From assembly GCA_028554795.2 (NCBI GenBank), contig CM068838.1:126053928-126117927 (forward strand): a stretch of 64,000 nt of DNA, given 5' to 3'. Numbering within the stretch: position 1 is the first letter of the stretch; each line of letters opens with the position of its first letter. Made by a program: the position numbers and the translations under genes. Of this stretch, positions 6,307 to 56,224 are shown piece after piece. The notes beneath the pieces were generated by a model. The model saw only the letters and a program-made list of their open reading frames with translations. It made no database searches and was not told the DNA's origin. Source of the stretch: Sinohyriopsis cumingii. Its lineage: Eukaryota; Mollusca; Bivalvia; Unionida; Unionidae.

Positions 6307-6439
6307 CAAATGCTGGAAGAAGAATGAAAACTGCTGAAATAGTTAGAAGAAAGAGAAGATAGGCACATTGAATTGAAAGATGTGGAACACATTTACATTT
6401 TTACATACAAGTTTAGGTTTTACAGTTACCAGAAATATT

Positions 6440-14600: not shown

Positions 14601-15109
14601 AAACACAAACTATAGTTTACACATGTATTAACTATGGAATTATAAGGAATCGATTGACCACGTTACACACTTCAGTATTTTGTCGACTGTCCGAATAAAC
14701 AAACCGAGACCATCCAACAGGGACATTTTCTCTGATAAGTGATTATTGCGATTGATCAAGGGCAACAACTTACTCTTTAGCTGTTTCAAAGATAGAAAAG
14801 ATTTATCTAACTTGAGGGGATTTGTCTCATTCTTATATCGTGTTGTTCTTTTTTAGTTTAGTAAATTAGATTGAAGTAAGAATATTGAAAATTAGAGTCA
14901 TGAAATTGTATCTTTGGGAAGACGGAATTTGTTCAAACATTTAAACACAAAAAGTTGTTTTAAGTTCTACATTTGAGCTAAATTGTGTAAAAAATTAGGT
15001 GCCTGGCCAAGTGGTATTGACTTCAAGATAGAGATAAAATCGGTTCGCTCAGGGTCTAGTCTTATTTTAGTTGGGTACAATGGCATTTCTAAATTATTGC
15101 AAAAGAAAC
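14601..15109. other. Unannotated AT-rich DNA
   Basis: Nothing recognisable. Confidence 0.4.
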
Positions 15110-15440
15110 CTGAAATCTGGAATAAAAAATTAATCTGGATTCTTGTAATCTGACTTACCCAGAATTGACCAATCAAATCCAAATTGACATGGATAATTTA
15201 TATTAGTAAAATAGGGACAAAGTCAGAATTGTTGTTTATACTATTTGAAGAATAATTAATTTACAATATTTATAATATTAATTTAAAAGTACGGTAGGCC
15301 TTTGTGAGACCATTATCAATCAGTACAGTCTAATGTAAAAACAAATAAAATCAAACATTGTCTATCAAGCCTGAGTTTATAAAAAATGTATGGCTCGGGT
15401 TTTAGCACCATGGCAGGCTCATTTGAAGTTCTGATCAGCG
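15110..15440 (+). repeat. Left part of duplication copy A
   Basis: Aligns over about 320 bases with 51485-51800, beginning at AGAAACCTCAAATCTGGAAT in copy B and its counterpart here. Shared blocks include TCTGGCTTACTCAGAATTGA, TTATATTAGTAAAATAGGGA, TTGTTTTTAT and TTTAGCAACATGGCA. It has the same order and orientation relative to the main duplicated block at 16060-22130 versus 55825-63780, so it is probably part of one ancient duplication. Confidence 0.7.
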
Positions 15441-15700
15441 GATCATTAAATAAAATTTAAACAAATGAGGAAGCTAGGGTGCATGTTGTCAACGGAACAA
15501 GGGATTTGTGAATGGATTCGTCTAAAGCTTGAACTCTTATTGCAGATTGATATGTTCATGTTTAACCATAATATAAGAATGGATATTACCAACTAAATGT
15601 GAGATTCTCGTTAGCGCTAGTAACCTAGAATGGACGGTGATAATGTAAGGAACTTTCCTTTACTGTTGTAGTACATTAGTTTGTTAAAGTTTTCTTCCAG

Positions 15701-16060
<360 letters not shown>

Positions 16061-17764
16061 TTACGCACACACTTACACACAAAAGCCAAGAAAAGAGTAC
16101 AATATTGCATAAAACATAAAATTCAACTAAACAAATTGGGTGAAATGTGAAGGTCTCTGCAAAGAATAAGCCTTGCCTGCTTCGCGTGCACATTACATTG
16201 TTAGAAAACTTGGCATAGCTAATATAGGTAGAAAAAGTCCTTATAACCTATTGCTTATTAAGGGTGTTAACGTAAGCAATAATTGTGAATGCACACATGA
16301 AATTGCATGATCATGCCACAATGGTTGGGAAATTGAGCTAAAGCAACAGTATCCGGCTTTGCTTCCCTACGAAATAATGATTATTATTTATAGTCACATA
16401 CATTGACGTCAATGAATGTAGATATTCGTGTCTCAGAATACATATAGAGGCATCATGTGACCATATTGATCATAGTCATATTTTCTATACATCAAGAATT
16501 TCCTCCGTATATTAAACATGACCTTTCTTAATGCGACAGTAATCACTAGTCATGATTTTGTCATCTTTCCCTATATAATGTCCGATGCACATTATGATTG
16601 AAGAAGGACGTCTTGGAGTAAATAGAATCAGTCTATTAGAAAAATATGATTGATAGCTTCCTTTCAGAGCATGCAGCGTGCTTTTAAATGGCAACTTCTA
16701 CGTTACCCCGCCCATCTTTGATATTATCAATTAAATTAAATATGTGTGACGTATACAATGATTTTGTGTTGCCCATAATATACTCTTATCTGGCACTGTA
16801 TCATTGCTTTGCCTTGAAGAAGAGTGAGAGAGACAGTGAAGTATTGTCGGGAATATTATATTAATTACATCTATATGAAGTATACGTTAGTTTTTTTGAT
16901 AAGTCATCTTCACAATTTACTATCTTGAGATTGTCCATCTTCCGGTCATGTCATTTTAAGCCAGTTTGAAAGCGTTGAGCTCCGTTGTACATGTTGCACT
17001 GTCTGCTATGAGTGTTGCACAGTCTATATGTGGACAAACGTAGACATCGTAAGGGATATATAGAAGAAGCCCAAGGTATCCAACCTAATTTAGAGCACGA
17101 GAGGCCAGCGCAAACATAACGTAATGACAGTAAACAATACATCCAAAGTACATGCGTGCGCGCGTGAAAACATATGCACCAGTCCCATGGCGGTTCGATC
17201 GCACATGGGCATGACAAATACATAAAAGAAGGAAGATGACATCTTAAAGGAGGTGAAGTACAACCTCTGTGGGAGGGCAGACCAGTTTTATCTCTCCAAC
17301 TATGGTAGAGGTTCATGTGATAATGGCTGATTTACGAACCTGCATATGCTTGATATACCATCCTCCCATTAAAGGGATGCTGCGTAAAACCAACTGCTGA
17401 TGTTACAGCACAAGATAACCTAAGGAAGGGTGGGATGGGGCACTGTATATACCAATGCCTCACACGCAATATATATGCACAGCAATGAGAAAAGAAATAA
17501 GCCTTCTAAATACTGGACATTGAGAATAACAACCAACACATTTTAGGAAAAAGCCGAAAATCAAAAACAAAAATATCAAAAGACACGAGTGACATTTATC
17601 GTAAAAAGAAATGACAGGCAAAAAGGTTTTTATTTATTAATATGTACATTGCCATATGATATTATAGCCCACTTTCAAGAAGTGAATTCAAACTATTAAA
17701 GGATAACTTGCAATCTAAAAATGTCCACACATAAAAACAGAGTACCATAATAAGATATTATTAA

Positions 17765-18020
17765 CGGGTTCTGGAGGATAGCCGTGTAGTCGGTCACCCT
17801 GTTTTATCTACCATTGGGGTCTCACCTCTGTCCACGTGTATTCGAATCTTAAGCTTGGCCAGTGTGGGCATGAGAGAAAGCTTGCTAGCTGTTTTCTTGG
17901 GTCGATGTTACTTGCCGTGGTGGTCCATTTTTCTTCTTCGACCAAATATCCCGGCAACTGTAAATAGAATATGATGTGCTGATGTGCTCAACCATGTTGC
18001 TAAACCCAAAGCAGGAATAT
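17765..18020 (+). mobile_element. Possible tRNA-derived SINE (copy A)
   Basis: An A-box-like TAGCCGTGTAGTCGG is followed about 60 bases later by a B-box-like GTATTCGAATC. A non-tRNA body follows and ends near CAACCATGTTGCTAAACCCA. Its counterpart in copy B is at about 57950-58180. Because both copies lie in the duplication, this need not be two separate insertions. No clear tail or target duplication was seen, so the call is tentative. Confidence 0.4.
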
Positions 18021-18225
18021 ACTGTTGCACGTATTCATGAAATACAATACATTTCTTTTCATACACTTACTACATAACCCTGCCTTCCATTACAACACAT
18101 GGCATATTGCAAATCGCGTCCATGCTAAAAAGAAACTAAATACATCGGATATACGAAAACAAGTGCGTTTCACTTAATGTTTTAAGCCATCTGCGAGAAC
18201 ATACGATATTAATCTGCATTTGATA

Positions 18226-18303
18226 TGAGCTCAGCCACGATCCAGGTTGAAACCTACTTGCTGCGGAACACTAATATATGATACCGGGTTTGAAATAAGG
18301 GTA
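18226..18303 (+). pseudogene. Decayed single galaxin-like repeat
   Basis: The plus frame starting at 18229 reads AQPRSRLKPTCCGT, then a YD pair and an F at the spacing found in the galaxin-like exon at 32888-33288 (IQPLSGLKPSCCGT, YD, F). Over the 66 bases from CAG at 18232 about 47 match, including a near-perfect run TTGAAACCT.CTTGCTGCGGAACA. The Cys pair expected before and the pair after are lost. An in-frame stop precedes the segment. It lies in duplication copy A at a place where copy B has different DNA. It is best read as a fossil exon of a second galaxin-like gene on the same strand. A retro- or DNA-mediated fragment copy is the alternative. Confidence 0.7.
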
Positions 18304-18839
18304 TTTGCGTCATTCGCTTTTTATATATGTATCATTTACTTTATGTTTTTGTTTCTTTATTTCCATCGATAAGATATCTAGATTTTCTTCTAACTTGAAA
18401 GCGATTATTGATGTGTCATTCGTGACGTATAAAGATAGTTCTATCAAATGAATGAAGAGTATAAGGAAAATAAATAACACCAGTTTTCTTTCAAAGGCAG
18501 CATAAAAGAAAGTGCAAATGAATTATCTATAGGATAAACAATATCAGGGCTGAGAGAGCAAATAAAGAAAATATATAATAGAACCATGATCGTCTTAAAA
18601 GTCGTAACAAGAACTTACAATTTCGAAAACAATCTCTTTAATGCCTTATTTCCTTATATACAAAGTAACATATATTTCATAGAGCAAAATATTTTCTGTT
18701 GCATTCTCTTTGACAAATTTAAAGTGATAAAAGCATGACATGTGATATATCTCTACCAAATGAGAATAATTACAAATATATAAGGATGGATGGTCAAAAA
18801 TATGTTTATATTTAATTTCTCTGTGTTGGATTGTTTATG

Positions 18840-20150
18840 AATTACATTCCAAAAAGACATCAACGTGTCTGGACAGAAACAAAACAAACTAAAACTATTA
18901 TATCCTGATTGTATTTGTATTTACATGTAGGTTAGGAAGGTAATACGCTCATAGGAGTTAAATGATAACATCCGTATCATTTAACATGATTTGTTCAATG
19001 CTGCAGTACTAAAGCTGATTGTCTCTTCATCACGTATTTGTTAAATTTAACAAGACTTACTTCCAAGGGTTGGTCTAAATCACTTTCTGTACGTTTTATT
19101 TATATGCCGAAATCTGTAGACTTTTTGTCAATAAATAGACAGTCGTAAATAAATAAATACATTTGAAAGAAACCGTGCTATTGAATTTTAAGTAATTACT
19201 CAATAGAGGTCATTACAAGCTTTGGGTAATATTTGCATTTCACATGTACATTTCACATGTACATTCCTGGACAAAATTAAGGTCATGTCTTGAAAAGGGT
19301 GATAGTTCCTGAATCTATTCTTGACATATATATGAAGTTATTCATATTGTCTAAAAATGTTTATGCTTTAGAAATTTGATTTGTGCAAAACGGCACAGTT
19401 AGGAAACTCCATGCGTAGTAATCCATGGACATGTATGGACAGAAAGAAACAAATTATTATACTCTGATTGCCTTTGCATTTACATGTAGGCATATAAGGT
19501 GACACGATCATAGGAAATAAATGATAATATCCTTATAATTTAACATGCTTTGTTCAATGCTTCTGTGCTCTGTCTCTTCATTATGTATTTGATGAATTTA
19601 ACAAGAATCACTTCCAAGGGTTGGTTCAAATCACTTTCTGTAAGTTTTATTTCTGTGCAGAAATCTGTACACGTTTTGTAAAAAAGTAAATAAATTTGAT
19701 AGACACTAAACCTTTGAGGTTTATGTAATCACTTAGTAACGCTTATACCGTAGAGTTTATTACAAGCGTTTGGTAGTAATGACATTTTCACATGTACCTA
19801 CCTGGACATAATCAAAATCATAACTTGAAAAAGGGCGATAGTTCCTGAATCTATTCTTAATATATCTTAAGTTATTCATATTTTCTAATAAGAATGATTA
19901 GGTTGCAGAAATTTGATTTGTGCAAAATTGCACGATTAGGAAACTCTATGCAGAATAATCCATGCAAAGGTTTGGACTGAGAGAAGAGATTATGTTATTT
20001 TCCTCAGCGAGTTTTCAGCTTCTCTACGATTGTTAAAAAGTTATATGTGTTGAATAAGTTAGGCTGATAAATGATGCAATGGAGAACGTAATTGCATAAC
20101 AGTTCAATAGAGTCCAGATGACACTGATCTCTTCCATCACAATAACACAT
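18840..20150 (+). repeat. Local tandem repeat, period about 540-560 bp, 2.3 copies
   Basis: The blocks GGACAGAAA..TTATATCCTGATTG, TTTACATGTAGG, CAAGGGTTGG and TTCACATGTAC..CCTGGACA recur at a spacing of about 560 bases. GTTCCTGAATCTATTCTT occurs at 19305 and 19841 (spacing 536). The corresponding region of copy B (about 59080-60080) has the same units with an internal deletion. No open frame spans the unit. Confidence 0.8.
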
Positions 20151-20654
20151 ACAGTTGTATCTCCAGACTGCACGGTCCTTACTAGAACAGTACGTTGTCC
20201 TACATCAGTTTCTATTATTTTCTGACGTTAGTGGTGGTGGTGGTGGTAAGTAATATCAACAAATTATATGACAGTTGCAGAATAGAAGTTGTTGGTCAAG
20301 TCAGGACCTTATTAGAAGTTAGTGTCATTCTTTAAGATCGCAATGATCAGTGTGTGAACCCTTCTGTATTTATGGTACTATAGGCTTTCTATCTGATGGA
20401 TGAAGATGTAAGATAATGCATAAATACTTTGAAGCGTTAATGAGTGCACGGGATTTGGCGGTTTGTATCGGATTGTTGTAATAATCTAGTAAACAAACAG
20501 ATGTTAAAAATCTTTTATGGATGCTATATTTCCAGGTAGCTAGAGACACGCGCCTTTTACTTTCATGCACATTTGCCAAGATATATTCTATATCATTAAA
20601 TAAATGTTAATATCTTCTAACCTTATGCTTTTACTTTCTTTTAATTTGTTTTAG

Positions 20655-20873
20655 GTATTTGAGGGAGAATGTGCCCGTCTCTGCGCACCACCTCTGGTTG
20701 AGCACCGATATAGGCCCCTCCGGCCTAACAGTGGTCATGAATATCCTTTAAGACGCCATCATTTATCTCCATATATCCTTATTTTATATTTGTCATCTCT
20801 ACCATCGACGCACCCATGTGTCCATAGGTGCGTATCAATAATGCCATTGTGTGCACATGTACGCCAAGAAATT
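20655..20873 (+). pseudogene. Candidate exon A of unidentified two-copy gene (copy A)
   Basis: A strong 3' splice site (pyrimidine-rich CTTTTACTTTCTTTTAATTTGTTTTAG) precedes an open stretch of 73 codons starting VFEGECARLCAPPLVE, then HRYRPLRPNSGHEYPLRR. It is markedly richer in GC than its flanks. Copy B keeps the same frame for 55 codons with changes at only a minority of positions in the first 33. A donor-like AG/GTGCGT lies at 20826-20833, but its phase does not join cleanly to the next candidate exon, so the exon end is uncertain. Family unknown. Because later parts of copy A carry stops, this is probably a dead copy. Confidence 0.45.
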
Positions 20874-21079
20874 TGATATCTCTTTTTAAGCAAGGTTTTA
20901 TTATTCTTGAGAAGATCTTACGTTTTGCTTGACTAATGTGTGTTTATTTTATCTGGGTTTTGATTAGTTTACATTTATTTGATTCTTAGTGTGGCTTTCA
21001 TGAAGTGTCTATATTAGCTGTGGTTTTGGTATTGTTGCATTTTGTTTTGTTAAGTAGAATGATATTTATTTTTGTATAG

Positions 21080-21379
21080 GTGAAGTTTAAGTTTGCTTTC
21101 TTGGAGAAGTTGTTGCATTTAAATGTTGGTTCTCATAATGGATGCGATCCTTTAGTATTCAATGTCGGTCGAAATGATGTTGAATATGTTTAACATTTAT
21201 GCTTAGATGAAGATAGAATAAGACGAATGGTGTGTTACTCGTGAAGTTGCAGTTGCACATGTAACCACGATGTCTTAGTGACAATCATATTTATACGCAC
21301 ACCTTTAAGTATTCTAGGTGTCATGAATGTCGTGTCTAAAGAGCCGTCACACATCTTTATGAGCGAAATATTAGAGACA

Positions 21380-21431
<52 letters not shown>

Positions 21432-21914
21432 TTGAAAATGTATGGTTTTCGCCTGGACGACATTGCTATATCCAGTATAGATTTATATATTTATATAAAT
21501 ATGTAATTGCATTTAATAAGGCAAACGTTAGTAACTTGGATTTCAAACACGAATTCGAATCGTCTCAGTTTCCACCCACGTTCGTACTAAATGACCCTTT
21601 TTTTGCAAGCCTCCATTTTCAAGACATATAAACATTTAAACAGGTGACATACATTTCTGACTGAGCAAAAGAATTGGAAGATTTGTATGCTACAATTAGT
21701 TTTCGCCGAAGAGACTACTGTCTCGATATTATCATCTTTTAGAAATGTATTAGAATGGCAATCATTTTGAGAATATGGCTGGGAGTCGGCTGATAGAGCA
21801 GAAATATTGATTTCGTACGGACGTGGGCCACGGTTTACTTGTGAAAAGTAATTGCCGGGTTATACAAATAGCTGCTGGTATTCTTCTTTTTGGCATGAGA
21901 ATGCATCAATAAAG
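21080..21914 (+). pseudogene. Terminal exons of unidentified gene (copy A), decayed
   Basis: A 3' splice site TTTTTGTATAG at 21069-21079 leads into VKFKFAFLEKLLHLN. The similarity to copy B runs to 21914, where the last codons HQ-stop overlap an AATAAA poly(A) signal (21908-21913). Several in-frame stops are present, for example TAA at the codon after VEYV and TGA in the ISD..AKELEDLY segment. A (GA)n tract of about 42 bases has expanded inside the region homologous to LETLRKR. No family was recognised. Confidence 0.5.
21385..21427. repeat. (GA)n microsatellite inside decayed exon
   Basis: About 21 GA units. In copy B the same place holds only AAGAAAGAGATGATG (near 63070), so the expansion is specific to copy A. 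Confidence 0.95.
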
Positions 21915-22130
21915 TTTCAGTCTTCAAACTACCGGTGAAATACGATAAATGTAAGAATGCTTGACTAGATAACAATCACACAACTTTTGACTATCTGTCT
22001 CGTAAATGCTAATAGGGAAGATGTTGAATATGACCCGAATAAATACTGAAAGTACTTTGGTACAGTTCCATGTAGACATTTATATACAGGAACTGCCTTC
22101 TGAAAATCTGCTATTTCATAGATTGTAAAC

Positions 22131-25100
22131 CATTGTACTTCTCTCCCTGCATGTTTGCTATCCAGCTGGGCAGGATTCCTTTCTTCCCTTTTTCTTGAGT
22201 TTTTATGCATGCGTGACCTATGCTCTTAAGGTATGGTGATGGTGTTAAGAAGTAATTGTTAAGCCTCCTTGAAGTACATGGTCCTATGTGTATTCACATT
22301 TGTTTATGATGGGCTTTACCTAAGTCACACTTGTGATAGACAGAGGGAGACACTGGACATATTTGTTATTATGCTAAAGTTTGGAACTATACTTTGTGCC
22401 TTAAAGCAATGTTGTTCGGAACGTTTTATCATACAACGTGTTTTCTATAATGTTTAAGAGATCTGATGTTTGTTTTTGCTTGTGGTATTTCCGAAGAGTG
22501 TTTACTCTTAAAGTGCATGAAAATTACATATGTTCTCGTTCATATGATTAGAGATATACATCGAATCACTAATAACATAGCTATATGTTTACCTGAGCAT
22601 CTCTAGAGTCTAAATGAGAACTTTAAGGATCTATACTGAAGTACCGAGATGTACATACACAGCGACGTTAGCGATATAAACTAGTTGGTTGTCCCAATGG
22701 CTAACGTGAATTGTTTGTATTCAGGCCTGTAAATGTACTATAAAATCAGATCAACGTTAATGCAAAGATTTCATTTTCTTTAGTTTCATTAAAAAAGTTT
22801 TAATTTTTACAATATACAGCTTTTTAATATGTGGCTATGATGAAAATGCAGGTCCAAAGGCTAATTGGTTTATTTGAATGTTAAAGAGATTAAGTTGTTT
22901 TGTATATAGCAATTTACTCCATGACCTCTTCGTGCTCATGATTTGGTATTTGAATTTGTAAAGTGCGTGACTCGTTCAGTAATAAAATCCTGCATTGACG
23001 CAAGCACTCGCAGATACATTTTTTTAAAGCAATTATTATACAGATCCATGTCTAAATAACTATAAATACCCTAGAGTAGAGATAATTAATTCGTATATTT
23101 ATATTTCTTCAAGCAGATACATCAAGACGAAAACAGGGTGATCAACTATTTGGAAGAGAAAACGTGGACACAACTGTGTAAGTATAATAAGATAATCATA
23201 TTTTCTGAACTTTATTTGAGTTATGTTGTCTTTATTATAAGCAACATGTGATAATATCAATACAAAACACACAATTCTCTTTCGTGAAAAGAAAAAAGGA
23301 GTCAAAAGACGTCTGATATAATTGTATCACATTCTGTTCTTTACGAGTTAGCCAGTTTGTGCTGGGTTTTGAAACCGTCTTTGAAAAGGCATGCCTTATG
23401 TGAAAAAGATATTTTGTTTATCGAGTAAAGTGAACTGTAAGCCAGTTTCGGGTTTATTGTTATAGACTAAACAATTATAACTTTGTTAATGTCAACATAT
23501 GTCCATTATGTGAATCTATATAAAATTAAGCAAACATAATTTTAACTGGAACAGACGAGGATTTGGTGTAGTCTCTAAATCTAATCCATCAAATTTGTTT
23601 AATTATTTCGTTAGTGAATTTGCAATCACGTTTCGATACGTCATTTTTTAAATTGTTCTAGGAAGCACGCTTTACGTTTGGTGATATCTTTCCTGATCAC
23701 ATATGTACAACCGTGGACATATCTTCTGGATTTGCAAATGACTGGTATATCCGCCTATTTGTCATATTTACCTAGACGGGTCGTGATATCGTTTTGGGCG
23801 ATGTCTATTTGAACTTTAATTTTCTTAAACGCGACAACATATTTGTGCACTGTTCTGGTGTTGTTTTCGGTTGTCTCTGTAGCCCACGCCGTACATTTTG
23901 ATTTTATCAGATGCTTTTAAAATTCTCATTTACATCTCTGTGGTATTTGATGGATTCTTGTATTTGTTTGAGATCCCAGTATCTATTTTATGCATTTCCT
24001 TCCAACCTGTCATTTGCTACTAATGGACAGAATTGTTCCCCTCCTTCCTTGGTTATCACTGTTCTCATATTTTCTTAGCCTGTGTAGAAATATAATACAC
24101 ATTGTATATATTTGGATTTGTGATACTTGTAATATACGTTTTATACTTTTGGACTTGTGACAGGACATTTAGTTCTCAATATTGTAAGAGTTGCGTTTAA
24201 ATTGTCACCTTAAAAGGAAGAGAAAGAAATTGTTTGTTGATTTTGTTAAAGCTTCGATGAGTTCTGTTACATAGTTTAATAACCTTGTTCGTAACGCATT
24301 TTTTGTTCTCTTAAGCGTCTTTGAAACTATGCTAAATGTATTCTCTCCTACATAGCTACATGCAGGTAAGGCAAGACGATAAACAAATAGTTGCAATTCG
24401 GACGAAACCTTTATCAGCTGACAGGCAATTAGTAATTTGGAGCCACTGCCAGGAAACTGAAAGTTTTGTTTTCATACGTTAAGCAATGTTCAACTTACTT
24501 AAGCACACACCACGTTATATGATACCTAAATGTATTGATGCACAAAAGCCATTCTGAAAAACCTGTCATTAATACTCTAGGGTAACAAGTATTTGTATTT
24601 CATTTAGTTTGCCCTGTACACGTTATTTGAAATTGTTGAAATCATTTTTTATGATGTATGGACTATAAATATGTATGCACTTATCTAGTAATTGTACACG
24701 TTAGCATGTGGAAACTACTATTTTTCTTACAGTTTGATGTTTACAAATCTGATACTACCCTCCATCTTTTTGTATGTGTGACAAAACTGATATCATACTC
24801 TGACCGCATTTTGTGTGTTCATTCCATACATGTTCATGTTTCGTATTTTTCAGTAATTGCTGCAACTTCTGGTTCATAATCTTATACGGGAGCTTTTCTA
24901 GACTTTACATCTAAATGTACGATTTCTTATATTGTTTTATTTTCTACTGTCTTCACACTTTGATTTTACTTTTTCTTACACTTACTAATTTTTAAACGTC
25001 AAGTCAGCTTCCCTTGTATCTGACTTTGATCTTACTTTGATCTTACTGTAGTAAGACTCTCCGCAATATTGGTCTGTGTACTAGATCACCATAAAGTGTA

Positions 25101-32163: not shown

Positions 32164-32310
32164 ATGGATTATTTCTTTTTAGTTTCAGTAATATTCATCA
32201 AGGGTTTAGCTTACTCATATGAGCAGAATCGAAGGAATGTTGAAATCCAGCCTACTAGTTCTGTGTTGCCTTTTGTCATGGATTACACCAATAGTGTGTC
32301 AAAGTGGGTA
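32164..32310 (+). CDS. Possible signal-peptide exon upstream of galaxin-like exon
   Basis: ATG at 32164 starts MDYFFLVSVIFIKGLAYSYE, a hydrophobic N-terminus that would make a passable signal peptide, followed by about 30 polar residues. It lies about 580 bases upstream of the galaxin-like exon on the same strand. The exon at 32888 needs a donor leaving one base of a split codon, but no good donor in that phase is visible here. GTAACA at 32308 would leave phase 0. The real first exon may therefore be elsewhere, and this is a hint only. Confidence 0.25.
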
Positions 32311-32887
32311 ACAATGAGTTATTTATTGTGGTTTTGAATATTATTATAAATAGTGCTTTTGAGTTCCAGATCTCCAGTTTAATTGCTAGGCCAAACAATT
32401 TTTATATATGCACAAAATTTAAGCAGCAAAGTCGAATATATATAATTTGATGTTCTGTCTGATTACTTACATTTAAGAAGTCATTTCAAGTTACCGTATG
32501 CTCAATTGGCATTCATGATTATTAGAAACAATTATTTATAATGTCGTTTTTCGATAATAATACTTACTCCCTACGTTTACACTGGTAATCTGAACTAAAG
32601 GATTTATGATTGTAATTGGTCGAACAGATAATTCAACTTGTTAGGTGTCATGTTATGACGTATCCATTTAAAAAGTGAAAGTTCATTTTTCCCAACGAGC
32701 TTTGTGATAAAGCAATAAGAAACACGTTTCCTTTGAAACCTTGTTATTTGGTTAGTATAATATTAGCGAGAAAAAAGTGTATATTTGGATCTAGGTAATT
32801 ATTATGATATGTAATGAGTTGACATAAAAATTGTAATTCATTAATATTGTACAAAACATAATATTTACATAAAATCTATATTTAAAG

Positions 32888-33288
32888 GTGTTTGCGGGCT
32901 TACCCAATACAATCCTACATTTAGTATGTGCTGCAGCGGAGTGGTTCAGCCAAAATCAGGTTTGCGACCTTCTTGCTGTGGAACAAAAGGTTATGACGCA
33001 GCATTCTACATGTGCTGCTCGGGAACTATCCAGCCTCTATCAGGTTTGAAACCTTCTTGCTGCCGAACAAGAGGATATGACGCAGCATTCTACATGTGCT
33101 GCTCGGGAACTATCCAGCCTCTATCAGGATTGAAACCTTCTTGCTGCGGAACAAAAGGATATGACGCAGCATTCTACATGTGCTGCTCTGGAAATATCCA
33201 GCCACTTTCAGGATTGCAACCTTCTTGTTGTGGAACAATAGGATACGATGCGGCTTTCAGAAAGTGCTGCAATGGTATATTGTGCTAA
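32888..33288 (+). CDS. Galaxin-like terminal exon (Cys-Cys repeat protein)
   Basis: The open frame starts after the acceptor-like AG at 32886-32887 (the only AG between the upstream in-frame stop at 32842 and the first Cys), giving a phase-1 exon beginning VCGLTQYNPTFS. Four 28-residue repeats follow (84 bases each, starting 32926, 33010, 33094, 33178), with pattern MCCSG-x2-QP-x-SGL-x-PSCC-x2-x-GYDAAF, then a closing KCCNGILC-stop: 20 Cys in all. Paired Cys with a YD between pairs is the hallmark of galaxins, first known from coral skeleton matrix. In the squid Euprymna galaxin relatives are secreted and antimicrobial in the light organ. A secreted, disulfide-rich protein is inferred, and biomineral, eggshell, mucus or antimicrobial roles cannot be told apart here. 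The ATG at 32926 is internal to a repeat and unlikely to be the true start. The 5' exons are not identified with confidence. Confidence 0.8.
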
Positions 33289-33390
33289 GTGGCACTACCA
33301 ACGTATTTTTGTAATGTTCGTTTTCTTCTGTTAACGAAATGTAATAAAAAACACCATCTTTCAATAAAGCTACTTAACATGGCTAAAGAA
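33289..33390 (+). promoter_or_regulatory. 3' UTR with two poly(A) signals
   Basis: After the stop of the galaxin-like exon, AATAAA occurs at 33343-33348 and 33363-33368. This spacing is what a short 3' UTR of a terminal exon would show and supports the exon being part of a real transcript. Confidence 0.65.
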
Positions 33391-38784: not shown

Positions 38785-41700
38785 TGATGATGATGATGTT
38801 CGTCCATCGGTGTCGATGAGGACCATTTAATGTCATCGATTCACTGGGGGTGTATCCGGAGATAGCTGATCAGTCCGATCCGGGCCCGGAAAAGTGTGTT
38901 GGAGTGGGGACATGGATGTGCAGGTTGCTGGCCGGGAGTTGCGGAACTGATTTTAATGGATTTGCGCAGATCACTTTTTTTTAGCTGCGTCCACCAGTCT
39001 TTTCTGCTCAAAGGCTTCCGCACCAGCGTTGACTTGACTGCGTCAAGCAGATCGGTTAACAGCGACACTCTCCCAGGTATCACGATCAATGCCTAGGTTC
39101 TTCAGCGAAGCCTTGATGGTGTCCTTGTATCTCTTTTTTTTTGACCACCGTGAGATCTTTTGCCTTGTTGTAGCTCTCCATAAAAGACCTTCTTAGGTGG
39201 GCGTTCTACCGGCATGCGGACAACATGGCCAGCCCATGGAAGTTGTGCCTTGCACAGCATGGTGTGGATGCTTGTCATGCCGGCCTTAGTGAGCACCTCT
39301 GTGTTTGGTACCTTGTCCTGCCATCTGATTTTCAGTAGTTTCCTTGGGGAGCTCATATGGAAGTGGTTCAGTTTTTTAAGATGTGGCTATACACAGTCCA
39401 TGTCTTACAAGCATAGAGGAGGGTGGGGAGAACAACCGCTGCGTAGACTTTTAGTTTGGTGACAAGCTTGATGCCTCTCCTATTCCAGATATTTAAGCGG
39501 AGTCTACCAAATGCTATGCTAGCTTTGGCAATCATATTGTTGACCTCATCGTCTATGTGGACTGCATGCGAGAGGGTGCTGCCGAGGTATGTGAACCTGT
39601 CTACAGTTTTGAGCTTATTGCCATTGACAGTGATGGATGGTTCCATGTAATCTTCTCCAGGAGCTGGCTGATGCAGAACCTCGGTCTTGCTGGTAGATAT
39701 GCTGAGTCCGAAGTTGGAGCACGCTTTGGAAAAAAGTTCCATAATCTGTTGCATGCCTGCCTCCGTGCTGGGGTTGAGGGCATAGTCATCTGCAAACAGC
39801 AGGTCGCGAATGTTCTCAACTTGGACTTTGGTTTTGGCTTGGAGCCTCCTCAGGTTGAACAACTTCCCATCCAGACGGTATATGAGACCTACTCCAACAT
39901 CGCTGTCATTGAAAGCATCCATCAACATTGCGGAGAACATGAGGCTGAAGAGAGTGGGGGCTAAGACGCATCCTTGTTTCACACCATTCGTAACTACAAA
40001 GGGTTTGGAATAGTTAACCTGGTCCTGGACTCTGGCAAGCATGCCATCATGAAACTGTCTCACCATTTCAATGAAGACTTCTGGACATCCAAATTTGGGC
40101 ATGATCTTTTAAAGGCCTTCCCGGCTGACAATGTCGAATGCCTTAGTCAGGTCCACGAAGGTGGTGTATAGCTGGACATTTTGTTCAAGACATTTTTCTT
40201 GCAACTGCCTGGCAGCAAAGATCATGTTGATGATGCCTCAAACCTTTCTGAAGCCACACTGGGTTTCTGGCACTAGGCCATGATCAAAGTGTTCTGTGAG
40301 TCTGTTCAGCAGTATCCTGGCGATGACCTTGCCAGCGATGCAAAGTAGAGAGATTCCTCTATGGTAATCGCAGGACTGGCGATTGCCTTTGCGTTTGTAA
40401 AGGTGGACGATTGATGCATCGTTGAATTCCTGGGGTATGCGTTTTATCTTCCACATGCCACAGAACATCTCTTTTAGTCTTCTCACTAAGTTAGACCCAC
40501 TAGACTTGTAGATATCAGTTGGGATGGAGTCTGCTCCTGGAGCTTTTCCACTAGACAGGAGCGCAATGTCCTTATGAGTTTCCAGCACTGTTGGAGGGTC
40601 AGCCAACATATCGTTGATCTCCACCTGTGGTAGACGGTTGATTGCTTCATCGTTCATGGAAGAGGGTCTGTTGAGGATACCATCAGAGTGTTCCGCCCAG
40701 CGATCCTGTATCTTCTCCTTCTCGGTTTTGAGAGTGCTGCCATCGGAGCTCGAGTGTGGGGCTGTGCCTGCTGTTACTGGGCCATACACGTCACGAAGAG
40801 CACTATAGAAATTCTTCATGTCGTGTCTGTCGGCAAAGGATTGGATATCATCAGCCTTTCGATTCAGCCATGTGTCCTGCATCTCGCGTAGTTTCTTCTG
40901 CACAGCTTAGCGGACTCTGCTGAAGGCATCTTTCTTTGCAGCAGACTTGGGATCGATGTTGTATGCACGATGGAGATGATGCTTCTCCTCTAGCACTGAC
41001 TGTATTTCTTCACAGTTCTCGTCAAACTAGTCTTGGTGCTTTCGGGCAGTGACGCCAAGGGCTTCAGATGCAGTGGAGTACAACAGATGTTTGAAGGCCA
41101 TCCATCATTTCTCTACGTCGTTGGTATCAGAGTCTGTGGATTCTAGCTGGCTTGTCAGAGCTTCAGACAGAGCTTGCTCATTGTTGCAGACTTTCAGTCT
41201 GGAGACGTTGAGTCGTTTAGGGACTTTAATTCCTTGTGGACGTCTGGGAGGTTTAATTTTTATATTCATCTTGGATATCAGTAGCCTGTGGTCTGTCCAG
41301 CAGTCAGCACCACACATGGCCTTGGTCACACGGACATCCTGCCTGTCATTCCTACGAACTAAGATGTAGTCGTTCTGATGCCAATGCTTAGACCGTGGGC
41401 GCATACAAGTTGTTTTATTGCGGTTAGGCAGATGGAAGATGGTGTTTGTGACCAGGAGATCAAATGTTGCGCACATTTTCAAGAGCAGATGTCCATTACT
41501 GTTGCAGTTGCCAATTCCATGTCTACCAATAACTCCCTTCCACAAGATGTGGTCCGCGCCAACTCTGGCGTTAAATTCACCAAGAATGATCAGCTTGTCT
41601 GACTTTGGTACCGAAGCAATCAGAGTTTCCAGATCCTGGTAGAACTTGTCTTTGGCTTCCTCCGAGTAGGTCATGATTGGTGCATAAGCACTAATGAGTG

Positions 41701-42656
41701 TGGCTTTCTTTTTTCCATGTAAGGGTAGCTTCAGCATTATAAACCGGTCATTAATTCCCTTTGGTAAGATGGAGAGCTTATTCAACAAACTTGACTTGAC
41801 AGCGAATCCAACTCCAGACTCCCGACGTTCCTCGGTGCCACGTCCACTCCAGGAAAAGGTGTAACCAGCTTTATATTCAGTCAGTTGGCGCTCGTAGGCC
41901 AAGAGAGTTTCACTTAGGGCTGCTATCTCTATCTTGTAGCGAGCAAGTTCTGTTGCAATCAGGGCAGTTCTTCTCTCTTGTCTGTCAGCCTCTGTACGAT
42001 CCAATAGAGTGCGTATGTTCCACGCACCAAGAGTGAGTGAAATTGTTTGGGTTTTCTTTGTGTTTCGACCGCATGAATGGGATTCCCTCCAGCCGCGGTA
42101 AGCTGGTCGGGGTAAATAAAGCAGGCAATTTTTTTAGGGCACCTTTTCTAGCCCCATCCTCAGGCTATGGAGGTAAGCAGCGCTATCCTGAAGAGGTCTG
42201 CTTAGTCGCTCAGACGGTTGCCGAAATCCATTTCTGCTTCAGATCAGTGGAAGACGACCATATGGCCTAAGCCGCCTGCGTGCAGGGCCGCCTCTACGGC
42301 TGTCAGTGTATCCACACCTGCCGCGTCGTAGCTCGACCAGCGCCTCAGGACTTGGGTACGGGTGATAGCATAAATGACTTACGCGTGAGTTGGATTAAAG
42401 TGAGGAAGAGTTGCGCTGCGTCAGCCTCACTCTCTCGTCCAGGCTCCACTTTATCCAGTTGCAAGACGTAGTCAAGACGGCTGGAATGGAGACTGGATGC
42501 AGTGGATGACCAAGGCGTCCTACGTGGCTTGCCGTGCTCTTAGCGTTCCACATCGCTTTTTTGGGTCCGCTTTTCTGCCCGTTGACCACATGGTGGTTCC
42601 TCCGCGCAGTCCGCCGGTTCCAGTCTTCACATGCAATGGGTGACAATCCCTGACTG
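38785..42656 (-). mobile_element. RTE-clade LINE, nearly full length, broken
   Basis: A minus-strand element of about 3.87 kb inserted in a tandem repeat unit. The sequence TGGAAAG flanks both ends (38778-38784 and 42657-42663) as the probable target duplication. From 5' to 3' it has a GC-rich leader, an apurinic-type endonuclease, a reverse transcriptase, a C-terminal zinc-finger-like CPHS..F..RIGLISYLRIH segment, and a 3' tail of (ATC)n repeats at 38785-38797, as RTE elements have. The endonuclease matches the type from which the CFDP2 gene of ruminants arose (BovB/RTE). The length and tail fit an element that is complete at both ends but no longer able to move. Confidence 0.9.
38840..42120 (-). 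pseudogene. RTE LINE endonuclease-reverse transcriptase ORF, broken
   Basis: Endonuclease region (about 42060-41200) reads LGAWNIRTL, SETLLAY, SGVGFAVKS, ISAYAP, LGEFNARVG, YILVRRND and DHRLLIS. The usual ETR and GDFNA residues are changed (R to L, D to E). Reverse-transcriptase blocks follow: SGKAPGADSIP, FNDASIVHLYKRKG, ISLLCIAGKVIARILLNR, CGFRK, TTFVDLTKAFD, VKQGCVLAPTLFSLMF, and FADD at 39785-39796 (followed by Y where related copies have C). YLGSTL and the C-terminal thumb come after. In-frame stops lie at 40238-40240 and 40109-40111, and a one-base loss in the A run near 39375 shifts the frame before NHFH. The true start is upstream of the TTG at 42002-42004, since the frame stays open leftward through LTLGAWNIRT. 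Confidence 0.85.
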
Positions 42657-45731: not shown

Positions 45732-47140
45732 TTAGTTATCTGCGTTCCACTCGCGACCAAGGTAACCTTAAAACTTGTTGCCAAAGGTTTCCGTAATATT
45801 GTACGTCCAGGCTCTAACTAAATCTCCTGAATCGCTAGGCGCCTATTTGAATCGATGTTCTTAAACTGTTCTAGAGTCAGGCACAAATTAAAAGATTAGT
45901 GATTACAACATACATTGTATCAAGATGATTCCACCAAAGTTATATTCGACACGATAAACGGTATTGGTGGTGTCTTAGACTACCATGACTGTACAATAGC
46001 AAAGTATTAAATCAAATATTTATTAATTCAAAGGTGTTTGGAAAGAGAATTTAGCGGTTTAATCTATAATTACGAAATCTGCAAATACAAAGAATTAGAA
46101 TATTGCTTTACCATTCATTTTCTTGGTCAAAATGAGTTGAACTGTGCAACCACATTCTGAAGCAGGTACGGCCCCTCATGACATCAAAGACCACATAGCA
46201 AACATTTGACAATGCTACTGACATGACCGCCTTCACAACGATGTGTGAAGCTCTTCATGCGAATTAACATTCCGGCTTGCGCCAGAAAGTTGTTCCTCGC
46301 TTTAGAATTGCAATCAATGTATGCTGTTCTCCATTCCACGAAACAACATTTCCTGACACATATGAAATATTAGTTGATACGAATTGAGATGAGACCATAA
46401 TCGCACTGCTGAATGTAGAAAATGTATGAACTGTATTCATGTTGGCTGTGTCGCAAGAGTTTGAATATCATTGCAAGGAAAGCACTTAGGCATGTTGGTG
46501 GTGAATCCCTAGTGGTAGTTCCGATGAGATCCACACTAATAAGGACCTAACTATATATCAGTTGTGCCATTTTCTATCAAATACTGCAAGATGCAATCTC
46601 CAGGACAAGAAGACATTCATATATCGAAACATAACTACAAACATTATTCCACTATTCATGTAGAAAAGTTACAGGATGTTTGATATTTATGATGGCATCT
46701 AAGAGTGGCAGAAAAACACAATTATTCAAATACAGTTTCTATAGTAAACACGATGTAAACTGATATTTCTTTTATGCTATTTCCGTTAAAGAAGGCGTCA
46801 ACATTTTATTTCTTTTTTTCATATTTTATTAGCTCATTTCCACACCAAGACGGTTCAGACTTTCATCCAACTGAGTTATTTTGTTTATTATATTTGGCTT
46901 TATGATCGATAACTGTAGTTTTAACCATTTCCTTTGGTAAATAGGTTTCTCCGCTTCCATCACCTCCGATACTATAGTCTCCTTTGCAATGGTTTAGAAC
47001 TTGTAACTAGACATAATGTTAGTAGGCTGTGTTTCTAAAGAAAGAAACATGAACCCCAAATTGTGCACAACTTGTTAACATATGTGCAAGCAGAAGACGT
47101 AAACGTGACCCATTTCATACCCTTCGTTGAGCGCCCGTGG
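45732..47140. other. Unannotated DNA
   Basis: Nothing recognisable as a gene. A GC-richer stretch at about 46140-46400 might be decayed coding DNA, but no frame is convincing. Confidence 0.35.
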
Positions 47141-47149
47141 GCTTAAAGT

Positions 47150-48330
47150 TAGGCGCAGAGATACTCGAAGCAATGAAATAGATACACTATATTAATTTTT
47201 GAACATTTTAAACTTTACCGTGAGAAATTATTTAATCACGTGTACATATATTAGCATCATGATTGAGGACAAATATAATATTTCACAAATATTCTCTTTA
47301 TTTTCATTAACAAGCACTGAAAATGTGTTTCCATTTCTTAAAACGTCGTGTATGGTAAAAGGGAGATAACTGAATGATAAACATTATATGTGGTATTTTA
47401 TTTTGCCCAATATCTCGTCTATGTAATATATATTAATTCATAAGACACATATTAGCCTGCATGCAAATAAATTATTATATTATAAATTTATGAGAACCGA
47501 AAATGTAGGCTTCGGTATGTAGTGCAGACCTTAAGAGTGTCTTTTGTTGTCTGAGATACGAATGCTATCTTATATCACATATTTAAGGATGTAAGCAATA
47601 CCGGTATGTGGAGCACATCCTTCCGTAAACATTCAAATATGATCACATGATAGTTTAGATTCTAACGATGGGATGCAAAGACAAATGAGAATGGGAAGTT
47701 TTATGACCGAACTGTAGATATATATGTGTAGGCAGTGCCCCATGGGTCAAGGGATAGGTTGAAGTTACCTGTATTATATTCCCATCTGAAATATAGGGTG
47801 AATAATTAAGATTATAAAGATACAAATATTTTATATTTGTCCTACACTGAAATTAAGAATAATGGGCATACAGTTAGGAGCAGAGATACTGAAAGCAATG
47901 AAAAAGAAATACTATATCAATTTTTGAACATTTTAAAGTTTACAGTGAGAAATTATTTAATCAAGTGTACTTATATTAGCATCATGATGGAGAAGAAATA
48001 TAATATTTCACAAATATTATCTTTATTTTCATTGACAAGCACTGCAATTGTGTTTCCATTTCTTGAAACGTCGTGTATGGTAAAAGGGAGATAACATCAA
48101 TCATAAGGCTCGTATTAGCCAGCATGCAAATACATTATTACATTATAAATTAACGAGAACCGAACATGTAGGCTTCTGTATGTAGTGCAGACCTTTAAGG
48201 TGTCTTTTATTCTGTAAGATAAGAATGCTGTCGTATATCACATATTTCAGGATGTAAACTATACCGTAAACATGCAAATATGATCACATGATCGTTTTGA
48301 TTCTAACGATGTGATACACAGTTTGAAAAA
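47150..48330 (+). repeat. Tandem duplication, period about 725 bp
   Basis: Unit 1 begins near 47152 (GGCGCAGAGATACTCGAAGC) and unit 2 near 47877 (GGAGCAGAGATACTGAAAGC). They run in parallel through TTTTTGAACATTTTAAA, TTAGCATCATGAT, TTTCACAAATATT and CGTCGTGTATGGTAAAAGGG to the GATCACATGAT stretch near 47643 and 48283. Unit 2 is shorter because of internal deletions. The open frame 47837-48094 lies in unit 2 only and is not conserved in unit 1. Confidence 0.85.
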
Positions 48331-48679: not shown

Positions 48680-51040
48680 CAGTCCTTCGCTGCACAAGTA
48701 GGTCATGTCGGTTGATGTTAACGCCATAGTTGGCGCGGAAAACATCTCATGGGAGGGAGATATGGGAAGACATGGTACTGGCAACTGCAAGAACAATGGA
48801 CATCTGTTCTTGAGGGAGTGCGCAACATACGATCTCCTGATCACAAACACGGTCTTCCGCCTTCCTAACCGTAATAAAACATCTTGGATGTACCGTCGGT
48901 CTAAGCACTGTTATCTGATCGACTACATCTTAGTCCGTGGGAATGACATGTAGGATGTTCGGGTGACCAAGGCCATGTGTGTTGCTGAATGCTGGACAGA
49001 ACACAGGCTACTGATTTACACGATGAATCTTAGAATTCGACCGCCCAACGTCTCCAAGCTGAAACACTGTGCAAGCTCTGTCGGAAGGTCTGTCACGCCA
49101 GCTGGTAGTCACAGACACTGATACCAACGACGTAGAGAAATGCTGGGCGGCCGTCAAACATCTGGTGTACTCTGCTGCATCTGAAACAGTACTGCGCGAA
49201 AGCAACAAGACTGATATGAGGAGAACCGTGCAGAAATACAGTCCAGGCTCGAGGAGAAGCATCGTGTCCATCCATCGTGCGAACAGCATCGACCTAAAGT
49301 AATCTGCAAAGAAAGATGCATACAGCAGAGTCTGCCAAGCTGTACAGAAGAAACTTAGCGAGATGCAGGAAACATGGCTGCGCCGAAATGCTGATGATAT
49401 TCAGTCCTTTGCCGACAGACACGACATGGATAATTTCTATAGTGCTCTTCGTGATGTTTATGGCCCAGTAACATCAGGCACAGCACCACTCTTGAGTACA
49501 GATGGCAGCACTCTTATAACTGAGAAGGAGAATATACTGAATCGCTGGAGGAACAATTTGACGGTGTCCTCAACAGACTCCATTCCATCAACGATCAAGC
49601 GAAGAGGTAGAGATCAACGAGTGTTTGGCTGGCCATCCAGTCCTGGAAACTCACAAGGCCATTGAGCTCCTGTCTAGTGGGAAAGTCCCAGGAGCCGACT
49701 CCATCCCAGCTGAGATCTGCAAGTTTGGTGTTCTAAATTAGTGGATAGACTAACATAGATGTACTGTGGGATGAGGAAGGAGAAACGCATACCACAGGAA
49801 TTCAAAGATGCATCCATCATCCACATTTACAAACGCAAAGGCAATCGCCAATCCCGCGACAATCCAGCGACAACCATGGCCAAGTCTGGATATCTAGAAG
49901 TCTTCATTGAAATGGTGAGGCATTTTCATGACGGCTTCCTTGTTAGAGTGCAGGAACTATTCCGTACCCTTTGCAGTCATGAATGGTGTGAATCAAGGAT
50001 GCGTATTAGCCCACTTTCTCTTCAGCCTCATGTTCTCCGAAATGTTGATGGATGCTTTCAAGGACAGTGATGTGGGATTACGTCTCCAATACCGTCTGGA
50101 TGGGAAGTTGTTTAACATGAGAAGGCTTCAAACCAAATCCAACGTCCAAGTTGAGATCATTCATGATCTCTTGTTTGCAGATGACTGTGCCCTAAACCCC
50201 AGCACGGAGGCAACAGAGTCTCGACTTTTTGTTCCACAGCATGCACCAACTACACCATTACGACTGAGGTTCTGCATCAGCCAGCTCCCGGGGAGGTTTA
50301 CATGGAACCATTCATCTCTGTCAATGGCCAAAAGCTCAAAAAGGGTCACATTCCTGGGCAGCACCTTCTCACCAGAAGTCCGCACAGACATTGACGTCAA
50401 AACGAGGAATGCCAAAGCCAGCGTAGTATTTGGAAGACTCCGCTCAAACGTCAGTGATAGGAGAGGCATCAACCTTGCCACCAAACTAAACGTCTACGCA
50501 GCGGTTGTTCTCCCCACCCTCCACTATATTTGCAAGATCTGGAATGTGTATAGCCACATCTTAAAAAAACTGAACCACTTCCATATGAACTCCCTAAGAA
50601 AACTAATGAAAATCAGATGCCAGGACAAGGTATCGAACACAGAAGTGCTCACTTAGACTGGCATGACAAGCATCCACACCATGCTCTGTTAAAAACAATT
50701 TCGATAGGCTGGCAATAATGTCCTCATGCTGTTAGAAAGTCTAATTACGAAGGCAAGAGATCTCCCGGTGGTTAAAAAGAGGTACAAGGACACACTCAAG
50801 GACTATTAAGAACTTAGGCATTGAACCTGAAAGCTGGGATAATGTTGCTGTTGATCGAACTACTAGGCGTAGTGAAGTTAATGCCGGTGCAGCAGCTTTT
50901 CAGGAGAAAAGACTGGTGGACGCAGCTAAGAAACGTGATCTGCGCAAATCAACTCACAGTCATCAACCTGTACATCCATTTCCCCATTGCAACAGACTCT
51001 TCCGATCTCGGATCGGACTGATCAGCCATCTCAGGACCCA
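48680..51040 (+). mobile_element. RTE-clade LINE, 5' truncated, broken
   Basis: Plus-strand element of the same family as 38785-42656. It begins inside the endonuclease (just before the DVNAIVGAENISW segment, equivalent to GDFNARVGADHTSW) and runs to a zinc-finger-like PHCNRLFRSRIGLISHLRT near 51040. It lacks the (ATC)n tail seen on the other copy, so its 3' end is also shortened. 5' truncation is the normal result of target-primed reverse transcription that stops early. Confidence 0.85.
48705..51030 (+). pseudogene. RTE LINE protein remnant, broken with internal deletion
   Basis: Blocks in order: VFRLPNRNKTSWM, DYILVRGND, then the linker FADRHDMDNFYSALRDVYGPV, SSGKVPGADSIP, FKDASIIHIYKRKGNRQS, FIEMVRHFHDG, VNQGCVLAHFLFSLMFSEML, FADD (50174-50185), VVLPTLHYICKIW and the C-terminal thumb. 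Relative to the minus-strand copy, about 350 bases between KGNRQS and the FIEMVR block are missing. This removes the first reverse-transcriptase palm motif with its catalytic Asp. There are several frameshifts and stops, for example TAG at 48951-48953. Confidence 0.8.
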
Positions 51041-51480: not shown

Positions 51481-51484
51481 CAAA

Positions 51485-51800
51485 AGAAACCTCAAATCTG
51501 GAATGAAAATTCATCTGGAGTCTTGCGATCTGGCTTACTCAGAATTGAACAATCAAATCTGAATTGATATGGATATGTTATATTAGTAAAATAGGGACCA
51601 TGTCAAAATTGTTGTTTTTATGATTCAAGAATCACTAATATACAATGTTTATAATACTAATTTAAAAGTATCGTAAGCCTTTGAGAGACTCTTATCATTA
51701 AGTGCAGAGTAATGCAAAGAAAGAAATAAAACAAAAAATGATTAGCATAAGTCAATAAAAAATGTAATGAACAAGTTTTAGCAACATGGCATTGAAAGTA
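51485..51800 (+). repeat. Left part of duplication copy B
   Basis: Counterpart of 15110-15440 in the same order and orientation relative to the main duplicated block. Confidence 0.7.
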
Positions 51801-52051
51801 ACTTGATCTTACCACAGGGTAACGAAAGTGTATTTGATCATGAACAAATGACTAAAACACCCTTGTTTTGTTATATGCAAACCTTTGTCAATTGTCATAC
51901 CACTAATTCAATCGGTTTCAGAGCTATAGCTAGCAAAGAACTGCATGCTTCCTTGATCCGAGGCACTGTACTTTAAGAATGGACGAAAATAGACGCTTTA
52001 CTTTTGATCTGTATGTTTACTAGATGTCAATCTTCAATTTGCTTATTTCAG

Positions 52052-52489
52052 TTATCGTTGAAACGAGTATTTATTTGGATGATTGTTTATATAATTACAC
52101 CCTGAATCCATGTTGTCTTTAAAAAAAATATGTGCATTGTCGCTTGTATAGTTTTTACACTGGATGCTAGTTTGGTCATACACGAGTTCGAGTCTAATAA
52201 TTAGTAAGATATAGAGATACAACAAACTGAAATTCGAAACATGACAGGCTATTAGATATCTCATCACTTGAAACCAATACCACTTAGGATTTGGCCCGAT
52301 CCAGATCATATGTTTCGATACTGCAGACATAGTTATCTTTTCATACCTTGTTAAAATATGTGACCATATGGTGGCAATCGTGATTGCTTCCAAAGTCAAG
52401 GGCAAATCTCTTATCTCAGGGGGATGATTCCGGTCATTTATTGGATGTACATATGCATATAGCTCCTCATCTTCATCAAATATATACAT
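52052..52489 (-). CDS. Unassigned 145-codon open frame, candidate exon
   Basis: One of the longest plausible host-like frames in the window. ATG at 52489 starts MYIFDEDEELYAYVHPIND, then HPPEIRDLPLTLEAITIATI, WSHILTRYEKITMS and GPNPKWYWFQVMRYL. The first 85 residues look protein-like. The last 45 (after HVSNF) look like intron read-through, and a splice donor may lie before them. The frame also stays open upstream of the ATG. No family was recognised. It lies in the part of duplication copy B that has no counterpart in copy A. Confidence 0.35.
   Translation of the reverse strand: MYIFDEDEELYAYVHPINDRNHPPEIRDLPLTLEAITIATIWSHILTRYEKITMSAVSKHMIWIGPNPKWYWFQVMRYLIACHVSNFSLLYLYILLIIRLELVYDQTSIQCKNYTSDNAHIFFKDNMDSGCNYINNHPNKYSFQR

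Positions 52490-56185: not shown

Positions 56186-56187
<2 letters not shown>

Positions 56188-56222
<35 letters not shown>
56188..56222. repeat. (GA)n microsatellite
   Basis: About 17 GA units, in a segment absent from copy A. Confidence 0.95.

Positions 56223-56224
<2 letters not shown>

What the first reader, a model, noticed from the sequence alone, without database searches (positions are those of the whole stretch)
32888..33288. Galaxin-like Cys-Cys repeat exon in a cephalopod-like genome
Four and a half 28-residue units with paired cysteines, a YD between pairs and 20 Cys in about 133 residues match the galaxin pattern. It has a plausible phase-1 acceptor and two poly(A) signals. Galaxins are known from coral skeletons and from squid symbiotic organs, where they act on bacteria. 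This is the best-supported host gene in the window.
Basis: partly seen in the sequence, partly recalled or inferred. Interest (0 to 1): 0.75.

Follow-up and report, generated by a model that had tools for sequence, protein, structure and literature searches.

The report
Galaxin-like shell-protein gene in a mussel
This is a real gene for a small secreted, cysteine-rich galaxin-like protein, probably in a freshwater mussel rather than a squid relative; it is one of a row of duplicated copies and most likely helps build the shell, as a published relative in the pearl mussel does.

Summary
Window 32888-33288 (+) encodes 132 complete residues with 20 Cys and matches Pfam Galaxin_repeat at E 7.2e-31. 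The nearest named protein, from the freshwater mussel Sinanodonta woodiana (Unionidae), has nearly the same leader, so the host is most likely a unionid-type bivalve, not a cephalopod. The window copy is the first of eight tandem copies found over about 220 kb: five have an open exon 2, three have in-frame stops. Exon 2 shows purifying selection in three of five pairwise comparisons clearly. AlphaFold2 gives a confident chain of beta-hairpins (pLDDT 93.9), the shape published for galaxins (PMC12419799). All nine di-cysteines have the spacing printed for cysrichin, a galaxin-like shell-matrix protein of Hyriopsis cumingii (PMC10045328). Most likely: a disulfide-linked shell-matrix protein. A defence role, as for squid EsGal1, stays open. 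New member of a known kind. No expression data were available.

The parts
32237..32303 (+). Exon 1, coding: 22 codons plus one base (phase 1); leader MLKSSLLVLCCLLSWITPIVCQ. An ATG at 32219 would add six residues but is found only in this copy
   Evidence: Leader of Sinanodonta P0001 hits 32237-32305 at 91% and the same place at 84% in the genome search; ATG shared with copies B, C, E, F, not D or H. Signal peptide judged by eye; no predictor was run
32304..32887 (+). Intron (proposed): donor GTGGGT, acceptor TTTAAAG
   Evidence: Of four donor/acceptor choices tried this one gives an unbroken 161-aa (from 32219) or 155-aa (from 32237) protein with all repeats. Donor use is inferred; no transcript
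32888..33288 (+). Exon 2: galaxin repeats, 132 complete residues, 20 Cys, stop TAA
   Evidence: PF24748 E 7.2e-31
33343..33368 (+). Two AATAAA poly(A) signals (33343, 33363)
18181..18297 (+). Decayed fragment of a galaxin exon
   Evidence: tblastn E 1e-4 with an in-frame stop; blastn 50 nt at 80%, E 1e-6
15100..22140 (+). Flanking part of the tandem duplication unit, upstream of the window copy
   Evidence: Collinear blastn pieces with 51481-63788, 74-88% identity
51481..63788 (+). Second copy of that flank, upstream of gene copy B, which lies beyond the window
   Evidence: copy B at C15:126129028

Best explanation
A two-exon gene of a unionid-type freshwater mussel encodes a small secreted galaxin-like protein related to Hyriopsis cumingii cysrichin. 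After removal of the leader, about 133 residues fold as a chain of short beta-hairpins. Each di-cysteine would bond to its neighbours, its first Cys to the preceding hairpin and its second to the following one, so that the 20 Cys form a ladder closed by the single Cys at each end. Mantle epithelium would secrete it into the shell-forming space, where this stiff, slightly basic rod joins the organic framework and affects how calcium carbonate crystals grow. Shown here: reading frame, family, tandem copies, constraint, a confident model. Taken from a relative: mantle expression and shell role. Inferred: host group, splice donor, disulfide pairing, function in this species.
For: PF24748 match. 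Leader shared with Sinanodonta P0001. Constraint on exon 2: A-F dN 0.125, dS 0.714, P 2e-9; A-E P 6e-9; A-C P 2e-4. Model pLDDT 93.9 with regular hairpins, as described for galaxins and calcarins in PMC12419799 (passages), including a single Cys before and after the di-Cys series. From positions printed for cysrichin, my own arithmetic puts nine of nine di-Cys pairs exactly two residues after those of the 161-aa window model, with five residues after the last pair in both. Cysrichin is expressed in mantle and less in gill, its knock-down disturbs nacre and prisms, and its peptide induces vaterite. Calculated pI 8.48 here, 8.15 for cysrichin.
Against: No expression, proteome or assay data for this gene. 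Against the printed cysrichin 20-mer the window copy matches 14 of 20 at best, less than copies E, F, H, L007 and L029 (15 of 20), so it need not be the orthologue. Three of five cysrichin primers show no match above shuffles in the window copy. Copies B, D and G are broken, so the window copy could be failing too, though its frame is open. Galaxin-like proteins also occur in animals without skeletons.
Confidence: 0.6

Rival explanations
1. The protein is a secreted mucosal or haemocyte defence protein that acts on bacteria, as EsGal1 does in the bobtail squid; birth and decay of copies would reflect pressure from microbes.
For: EsGal1 had activity against Gram-positive bacteria and influenced Vibrio fischeri growth (passages of PMC5216023); galaxin is listed among antimicrobials of squid mucus (passages of PMC8547416); galaxin transcripts are correlated with modulated lncRNAs in infected Mytilus gills (passages of PMC7772429). 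The protein is cationic and Cys-rich, and copy number turns over.
Against: The relative in the same family Unionidae with functional data is a shell protein. Replacement changes are held down, not raised, in A-E, A-F and A-C.
Confidence: 0.25
2. The window copy is a silent or dying duplicate: its upstream splice donor is not used, and the working genes of the array are others (C, E, F or H).
For: The GT at 32308, aligned with the GT of E and F, gives only a 41-aa product. Three of eight copies have in-frame stops. No transcript was available.
Against: Exon 2 is open with all 20 Cys. On the A lineage 7 synonymous and 5 replacement changes were counted against 3 and 12 on the stop-bearing B lineage, 8 sites unresolved. 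The GT at 32304 keeps the frame and scores higher than 32308 with a matrix recalled from memory.
Confidence: 0.12
3. An unrelated Cys-rich shell protein such as lustrin or pearlin that only resembles galaxin.
For: Di-Cys motifs also occur in N14, lustrin A and pearlin (said in PMC10045328).
Against: PF24748 at 107.3 bits, next family at E 0.43; the CC/YD spacing recurs in the aligned homologues.
Confidence: 0.01

Closest known systems
Cysrichin of Hyriopsis (Sinohyriopsis) cumingii (PMC10045328; GenBank MN829946 as cited there)
   Same: Length (163 v 161 aa), leader plus galaxin units, nine of nine di-Cys pairs in the same register, Cys content, basic pI
   Different: Printed 20-residue unit matches at most 14 of 20 here; full cysrichin sequence not available here; orthologue or paralogue undecided
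Sinanodonta woodiana hypothetical protein ACJMK2_009014 (P0001)
   Same: Leader nearly identical; 74% identity over 67% of the query
   Different: One unit fewer, different C-terminus; not encoded identically in this genome (best pieces 61-73% except short ones)
Coral galaxins (Galaxea, Acropora)
   Same: Secreted, about 30-aa repeats with two di-Cys motifs (PMC2726143 passages); predicted hairpin chain
   Different: Coral proteins are longer (338 aa in Acropora), moderately acidic (pI 4.52) with a dibasic processing site; window protein is basic. Coral sequences were not aligned here except Porites P0012 in A3
EsGal1 of Euprymna scolopes
   Same: A mollusc galaxin (passages only)
   Different: Sequence not compared here; its known role is antimicrobial and symbiotic

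Membership tests
Galaxin-repeat proteins (Pfam PF24748) | Profile match above the curated cut-off | tested here: met
   107.3 bits against 28; also met by copies C, E, F, H, L007 and L029
Galaxin-repeat proteins (Pfam PF24748) | Two di-Cys motifs per unit of about 28-30 residues, single Cys before and after the series | tested here: met
   Cys positions; published description
Galaxin-repeat proteins (Pfam PF24748) | Chain of beta-hairpins | tested here: met
   Model pLDDT 93.9, pTM 0.74; disulfide distances not measured; of five models two were at 69.0 and 43.6
Galaxin-repeat proteins (Pfam PF24748) | Signal peptide | tested here: inconclusive
   Hydrophobic leader exon found and shared with P0001; no predictor run, splice not shown
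Cysrichin | Nine di-Cys pairs at the printed spacing, total length about 163 aa | tested here: met
   Own arithmetic: nine of nine
Cysrichin | Orthology by full sequence | tested here: inconclusive
   Two of five primers match unit 1 at 18 of 20 and 18 of 21 bases, three do not; 20-mer 14 of 20; genome query with printed peptides did not complete
Shell-matrix proteins | Mantle expression and presence in shell | not testable with these tools
   No transcripts or proteomes of the source species
EsGal1-like antimicrobial galaxins | Activity on bacteria, expression in symbiotic organ | not testable with these tools
   None here

The most novel reading that the evidence does not exclude
The locus is a birth-and-death array in which a mussel lineage tunes a disulfide-rod shell protein by repeat number: open copies with 3.5, 4.5 and 6.5 units in the array and a relative on C4 with a 955-aa open frame of such repeats (about 33 units). 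Within the array, copies A-D are one base longer at the end of exon 1, which puts the donor aligned with that of E and F out of frame, and A, C and D have a GT four bases upstream that restores it. Rod length would then be a heritable dial for shell microstructure or crystal form.
Probability: 0.2. Interest if true: 0.5.

Novelty: new member of a known kind. Interest (0 to 1): 0.3.

Why it matters
It places the galaxin family, best known from corals, in a mussel genome as a tandem array of at least eight copies plus a very long relative on another chromosome. Clustered galaxin genes are already described in the coral Acropora millepora (PMC12419799 passages); in the library listings for galaxin with Unionida, freshwater mussel, tandem duplication or gene family I saw no title on such an array in freshwater mussels, which is a weak negative. 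The copies differ in repeat number, so they allow a direct test of how the length of a disulfide-linked matrix protein affects nacre, prisms and vaterite, which bears on pearl quality.

Tried and rejected
Cephalopod origin: rejected on the named best hit and shared leader. Source species Sinanodonta woodiana: P0001 is not encoded identically. Retrotransposon frame as species marker: useless, named hits among the 120 listed of 1786 come from flatworms, shrimps, fish, sea urchins and others. First ATG (32219) as the start: kept as an alternative only, since the aligned copies lack it. Donor 32308 with acceptor 32888: 41 aa; with acceptor 32925 it gives 150 aa that lack the first Cys segment, a variant I did not exclude. 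A short exon between exons 1 and 2: considered, not searched for. E/F donor: the aligned GTAGCA scores poorly (-5.89); a GTGAGT six bases further on, seen by eye, is also phase 1, so which one E and F use is open and the one-base-insertion story is less certain for it. Solved structures: no significant sequence match (16 listed, best E 0.07) and no fold match at E <= 0.001 in PDB or viral models. Rfam and tRNA: no hits in the window. Concerted evolution of repeats: only partial; between A and C the first units are 90.5% and the last units 97.6% identical, while units within A average 81.3%. Cysrichin qPCR-F primer as support for exon 1: no match. Exon 1 for L007 (about 1.5 kb upstream searched) and for copy G: not found.

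Full report
What is there. The stop-to-stop frame 32845-33288 (+) is 147 aa. After an AG acceptor ending at 32887 it holds two bases of a split codon, 132 residues and a TAA. The 132 residues have 20 cysteines: nine di-Cys pairs and one single Cys near each end. The repeat is 84 nt (TRF score 470). Pfam Galaxin_repeat matches profile positions 3-131 of 131, E 7.2e-31. Two AATAAA signals follow at 33343 and 33363.

Exon 1. Upstream, 32219-32305 reads MSRIEGMLKSSLLVLCCLLSWITPIVCQS. The best database hit, P0001 of Sinanodonta woodiana, begins MYKFSLLVLCCLLSWITPIVCQST and then enters the repeats. That leader hits the window at 32237-32305 with 91% identity, and P0001 residues 1-25 hit the same place at 84% in the genome search. 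The ATG at 32237 is shared by copies B, C, E and F; D has TTG there and H starts elsewhere; the ATG at 32219 is only in the window copy. Donor 32304 (CAAA|GTGGGT) with acceptor 32888 gives an unbroken protein of 161 aa from 32219, or 155 aa from 32237; donor 32308 gives 41 aa with that acceptor, or 150 aa with a later AG at 32925 that drops the first Cys segment. In E and F the aligned GT, and in H and the C4 relative the apparent donor, are in phase 1 (my reading of sequences). A-D are one base longer in this stretch; A, C and D have a GT four bases upstream that keeps the frame, B does not. Use of that GT is inferred. A donor score with matrix values recalled from memory gives 2.42 for 32304 and -0.40 for 32308 (97th and 87th percentile of 3767 GT sites in the window); the same matrix rates the aligned donor of E at -5.89 and of H at -0.86, so it does not support all the phase-1 sites.

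Host. Sinanodonta woodiana is a freshwater mussel, Unionidae, as is Hyriopsis cumingii. The single-sequence search returned 3 proteins at E <= 0.01; the alignment search returned 33 at E <= 1e-5, with organism names shown for five: Sinanodonta woodiana, Gigantopelta aegis, Porites lobata, Desmophyllum pertusum and Biomphalaria glabrata. P0001 is not encoded identically there, so the species is probably another unionid-type bivalve; I could not name it. The host statement rests mainly on this one leader match.

Tandem array. The genome search with the window frame gave 56 match pieces, 150 of 345 candidates being scored, so counts are lower bounds. On C15 eight copies follow one another on the + strand, exon-2 matches starting at 126086.8 (window, A), 126129.0 (B), 126161.6 (C), 126194.1 (D), 126249.4 (E), 126270.1 (F), 126283.2 (G) and 126306.0 kb (H). 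By translation A, C, E, F and H have an open exon 2 (5 of 8); B, D and G carry in-frame stops (3 of 8). C has 6.5 units, A, E and F 4.5, H 3.5. A leader-like match for H lies about 4.7 kb upstream of its exon 2; none was found for G. A further open exon 2 lies at C15:130460 kb (L007; no leader found in about 1.5 kb upstream). A relative on C4 (L029) has a 955-aa open frame of galaxin repeats (993.9 bits) and a leader-like exon ending in A|GTAAGT; its frame ends before the usual C-terminus, and one search shows a match running past that TAA, so it may be cut short. More distant matches on C2, C4, C11, C15 and single ones elsewhere were not studied. In the window, 15100-22140 recurs at 51481-63788 in collinear pieces of 74-88% identity; each lies upstream of a galaxin copy, so I read it as flank of the duplicated unit. 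A decayed galaxin fragment lies at 18181-18297.

Selection. Exon 2, dN and dS: A-F 0.125, 0.714; A-E 0.132, 0.717; A-C (C without two units) 0.061, 0.242; A-B (stop skipped) 0.072, 0.167; E-F 0.020, 0.056. Counts against a neutral expectation: P 2.2e-9 (A-F), 5.9e-9 (A-E), 2e-4 (A-C), 0.025 (A-B), 0.09 (E-F, not significant). Polarised by E and F, the A lineage has 7 synonymous and 5 replacement changes, the B lineage 3 and 12; 8 sites unresolved. The window copy thus looks constrained. Gene conversion between copies could bias these figures.

Structure. AlphaFold2 on a 21-sequence alignment gives pLDDT 93.9, pTM 0.74 and sixteen four-residue strands in regular hairpins; the five models scored 93.9, 93.7, 83.2, 69.0 and 43.6. 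PMC12419799 (passages) describes for galaxins and sponge calcarins hairpins in which the first Cys of a pair bonds to the second Cys of the preceding hairpin, with a single Cys before and after the series. The window protein has this layout, which would give ten bonds using all 20 Cys (inference; I had no coordinates to measure). No solved structure matches by sequence (best E 0.07) or by fold (none at E <= 0.001).

Function. Cysrichin of Hyriopsis cumingii (PMC10045328: outline, part 1 of 5 of the text, sections 3.1 and 4, and figures and tables seen) has 163 aa. Its printed motif positions put nine of nine di-Cys pairs two residues after those of the 161-aa window model, with five residues after the last pair in both (own arithmetic). 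It is expressed strongly in mantle and less in gill; knock-down disturbs nacre and prisms; the peptide induces vaterite. Of five of its primers tested, two match unit 1 of the window copy at 18 of 20 and 18 of 21 bases; three do not exceed shuffles clearly. Its printed 20-residue unit matches the window copy at 14 of 20 and several other copies at 15 of 20. The window gene is a close relative, orthologue or paralogue undecided; a shell-matrix role is the best guess. The squid parallel (EsGal1; PMC5216023 and PMC8547416 passages) and galaxin in infected Mytilus gills (PMC7772429 passages) keep a defence role open.

Verdict. A real gene, rightly recognised as galaxin-like, wrongly placed in a cephalopod. 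It is a new member of a known kind; the tandem array and the variation in repeat number are its more interesting part.

Noticed in passing
window 38855-42133 (-) and 48718-51036 (+): Two inverted copies (about 78% identical) of a non-LTR retrotransposon: endonuclease/phosphatase domain (41105-42130) and reverse transcriptase (39371-40108) are recognised in the first copy; frames are broken into pieces.
   Followed up: partly
window 53185-54528 (-): Pieces of a second retroelement; a weak reverse transcriptase match (28.5 bits, just under the 29.6 cut-off) at 54196-54528.
   Followed up: no
window 47138-48321: Direct duplication with starts about 0.7 kb apart, pieces 79-90% identical.
   Followed up: no
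L029 (C4:92174500-92183000), 4755-7622: A 955-aa open frame of galaxin repeats, PF24748 at 993.9 bits, with a leader-like exon at 906-981; possibly cut short by a stop at its end.
   Followed up: partly
L013 3663-4226 (array copy C): Sub-threshold match to PF10645 Carb_bind (21.3 bits, cut-off 25); the window copy shows it at E 0.43 only.
   Followed up: no
G000 C2:141.52 Mb, C4:139.88 Mb, C11:70.87 Mb, C15:77.37 Mb: Further, more distant galaxin-like repeat frames, one open for 951 aa or more.
   Followed up: no
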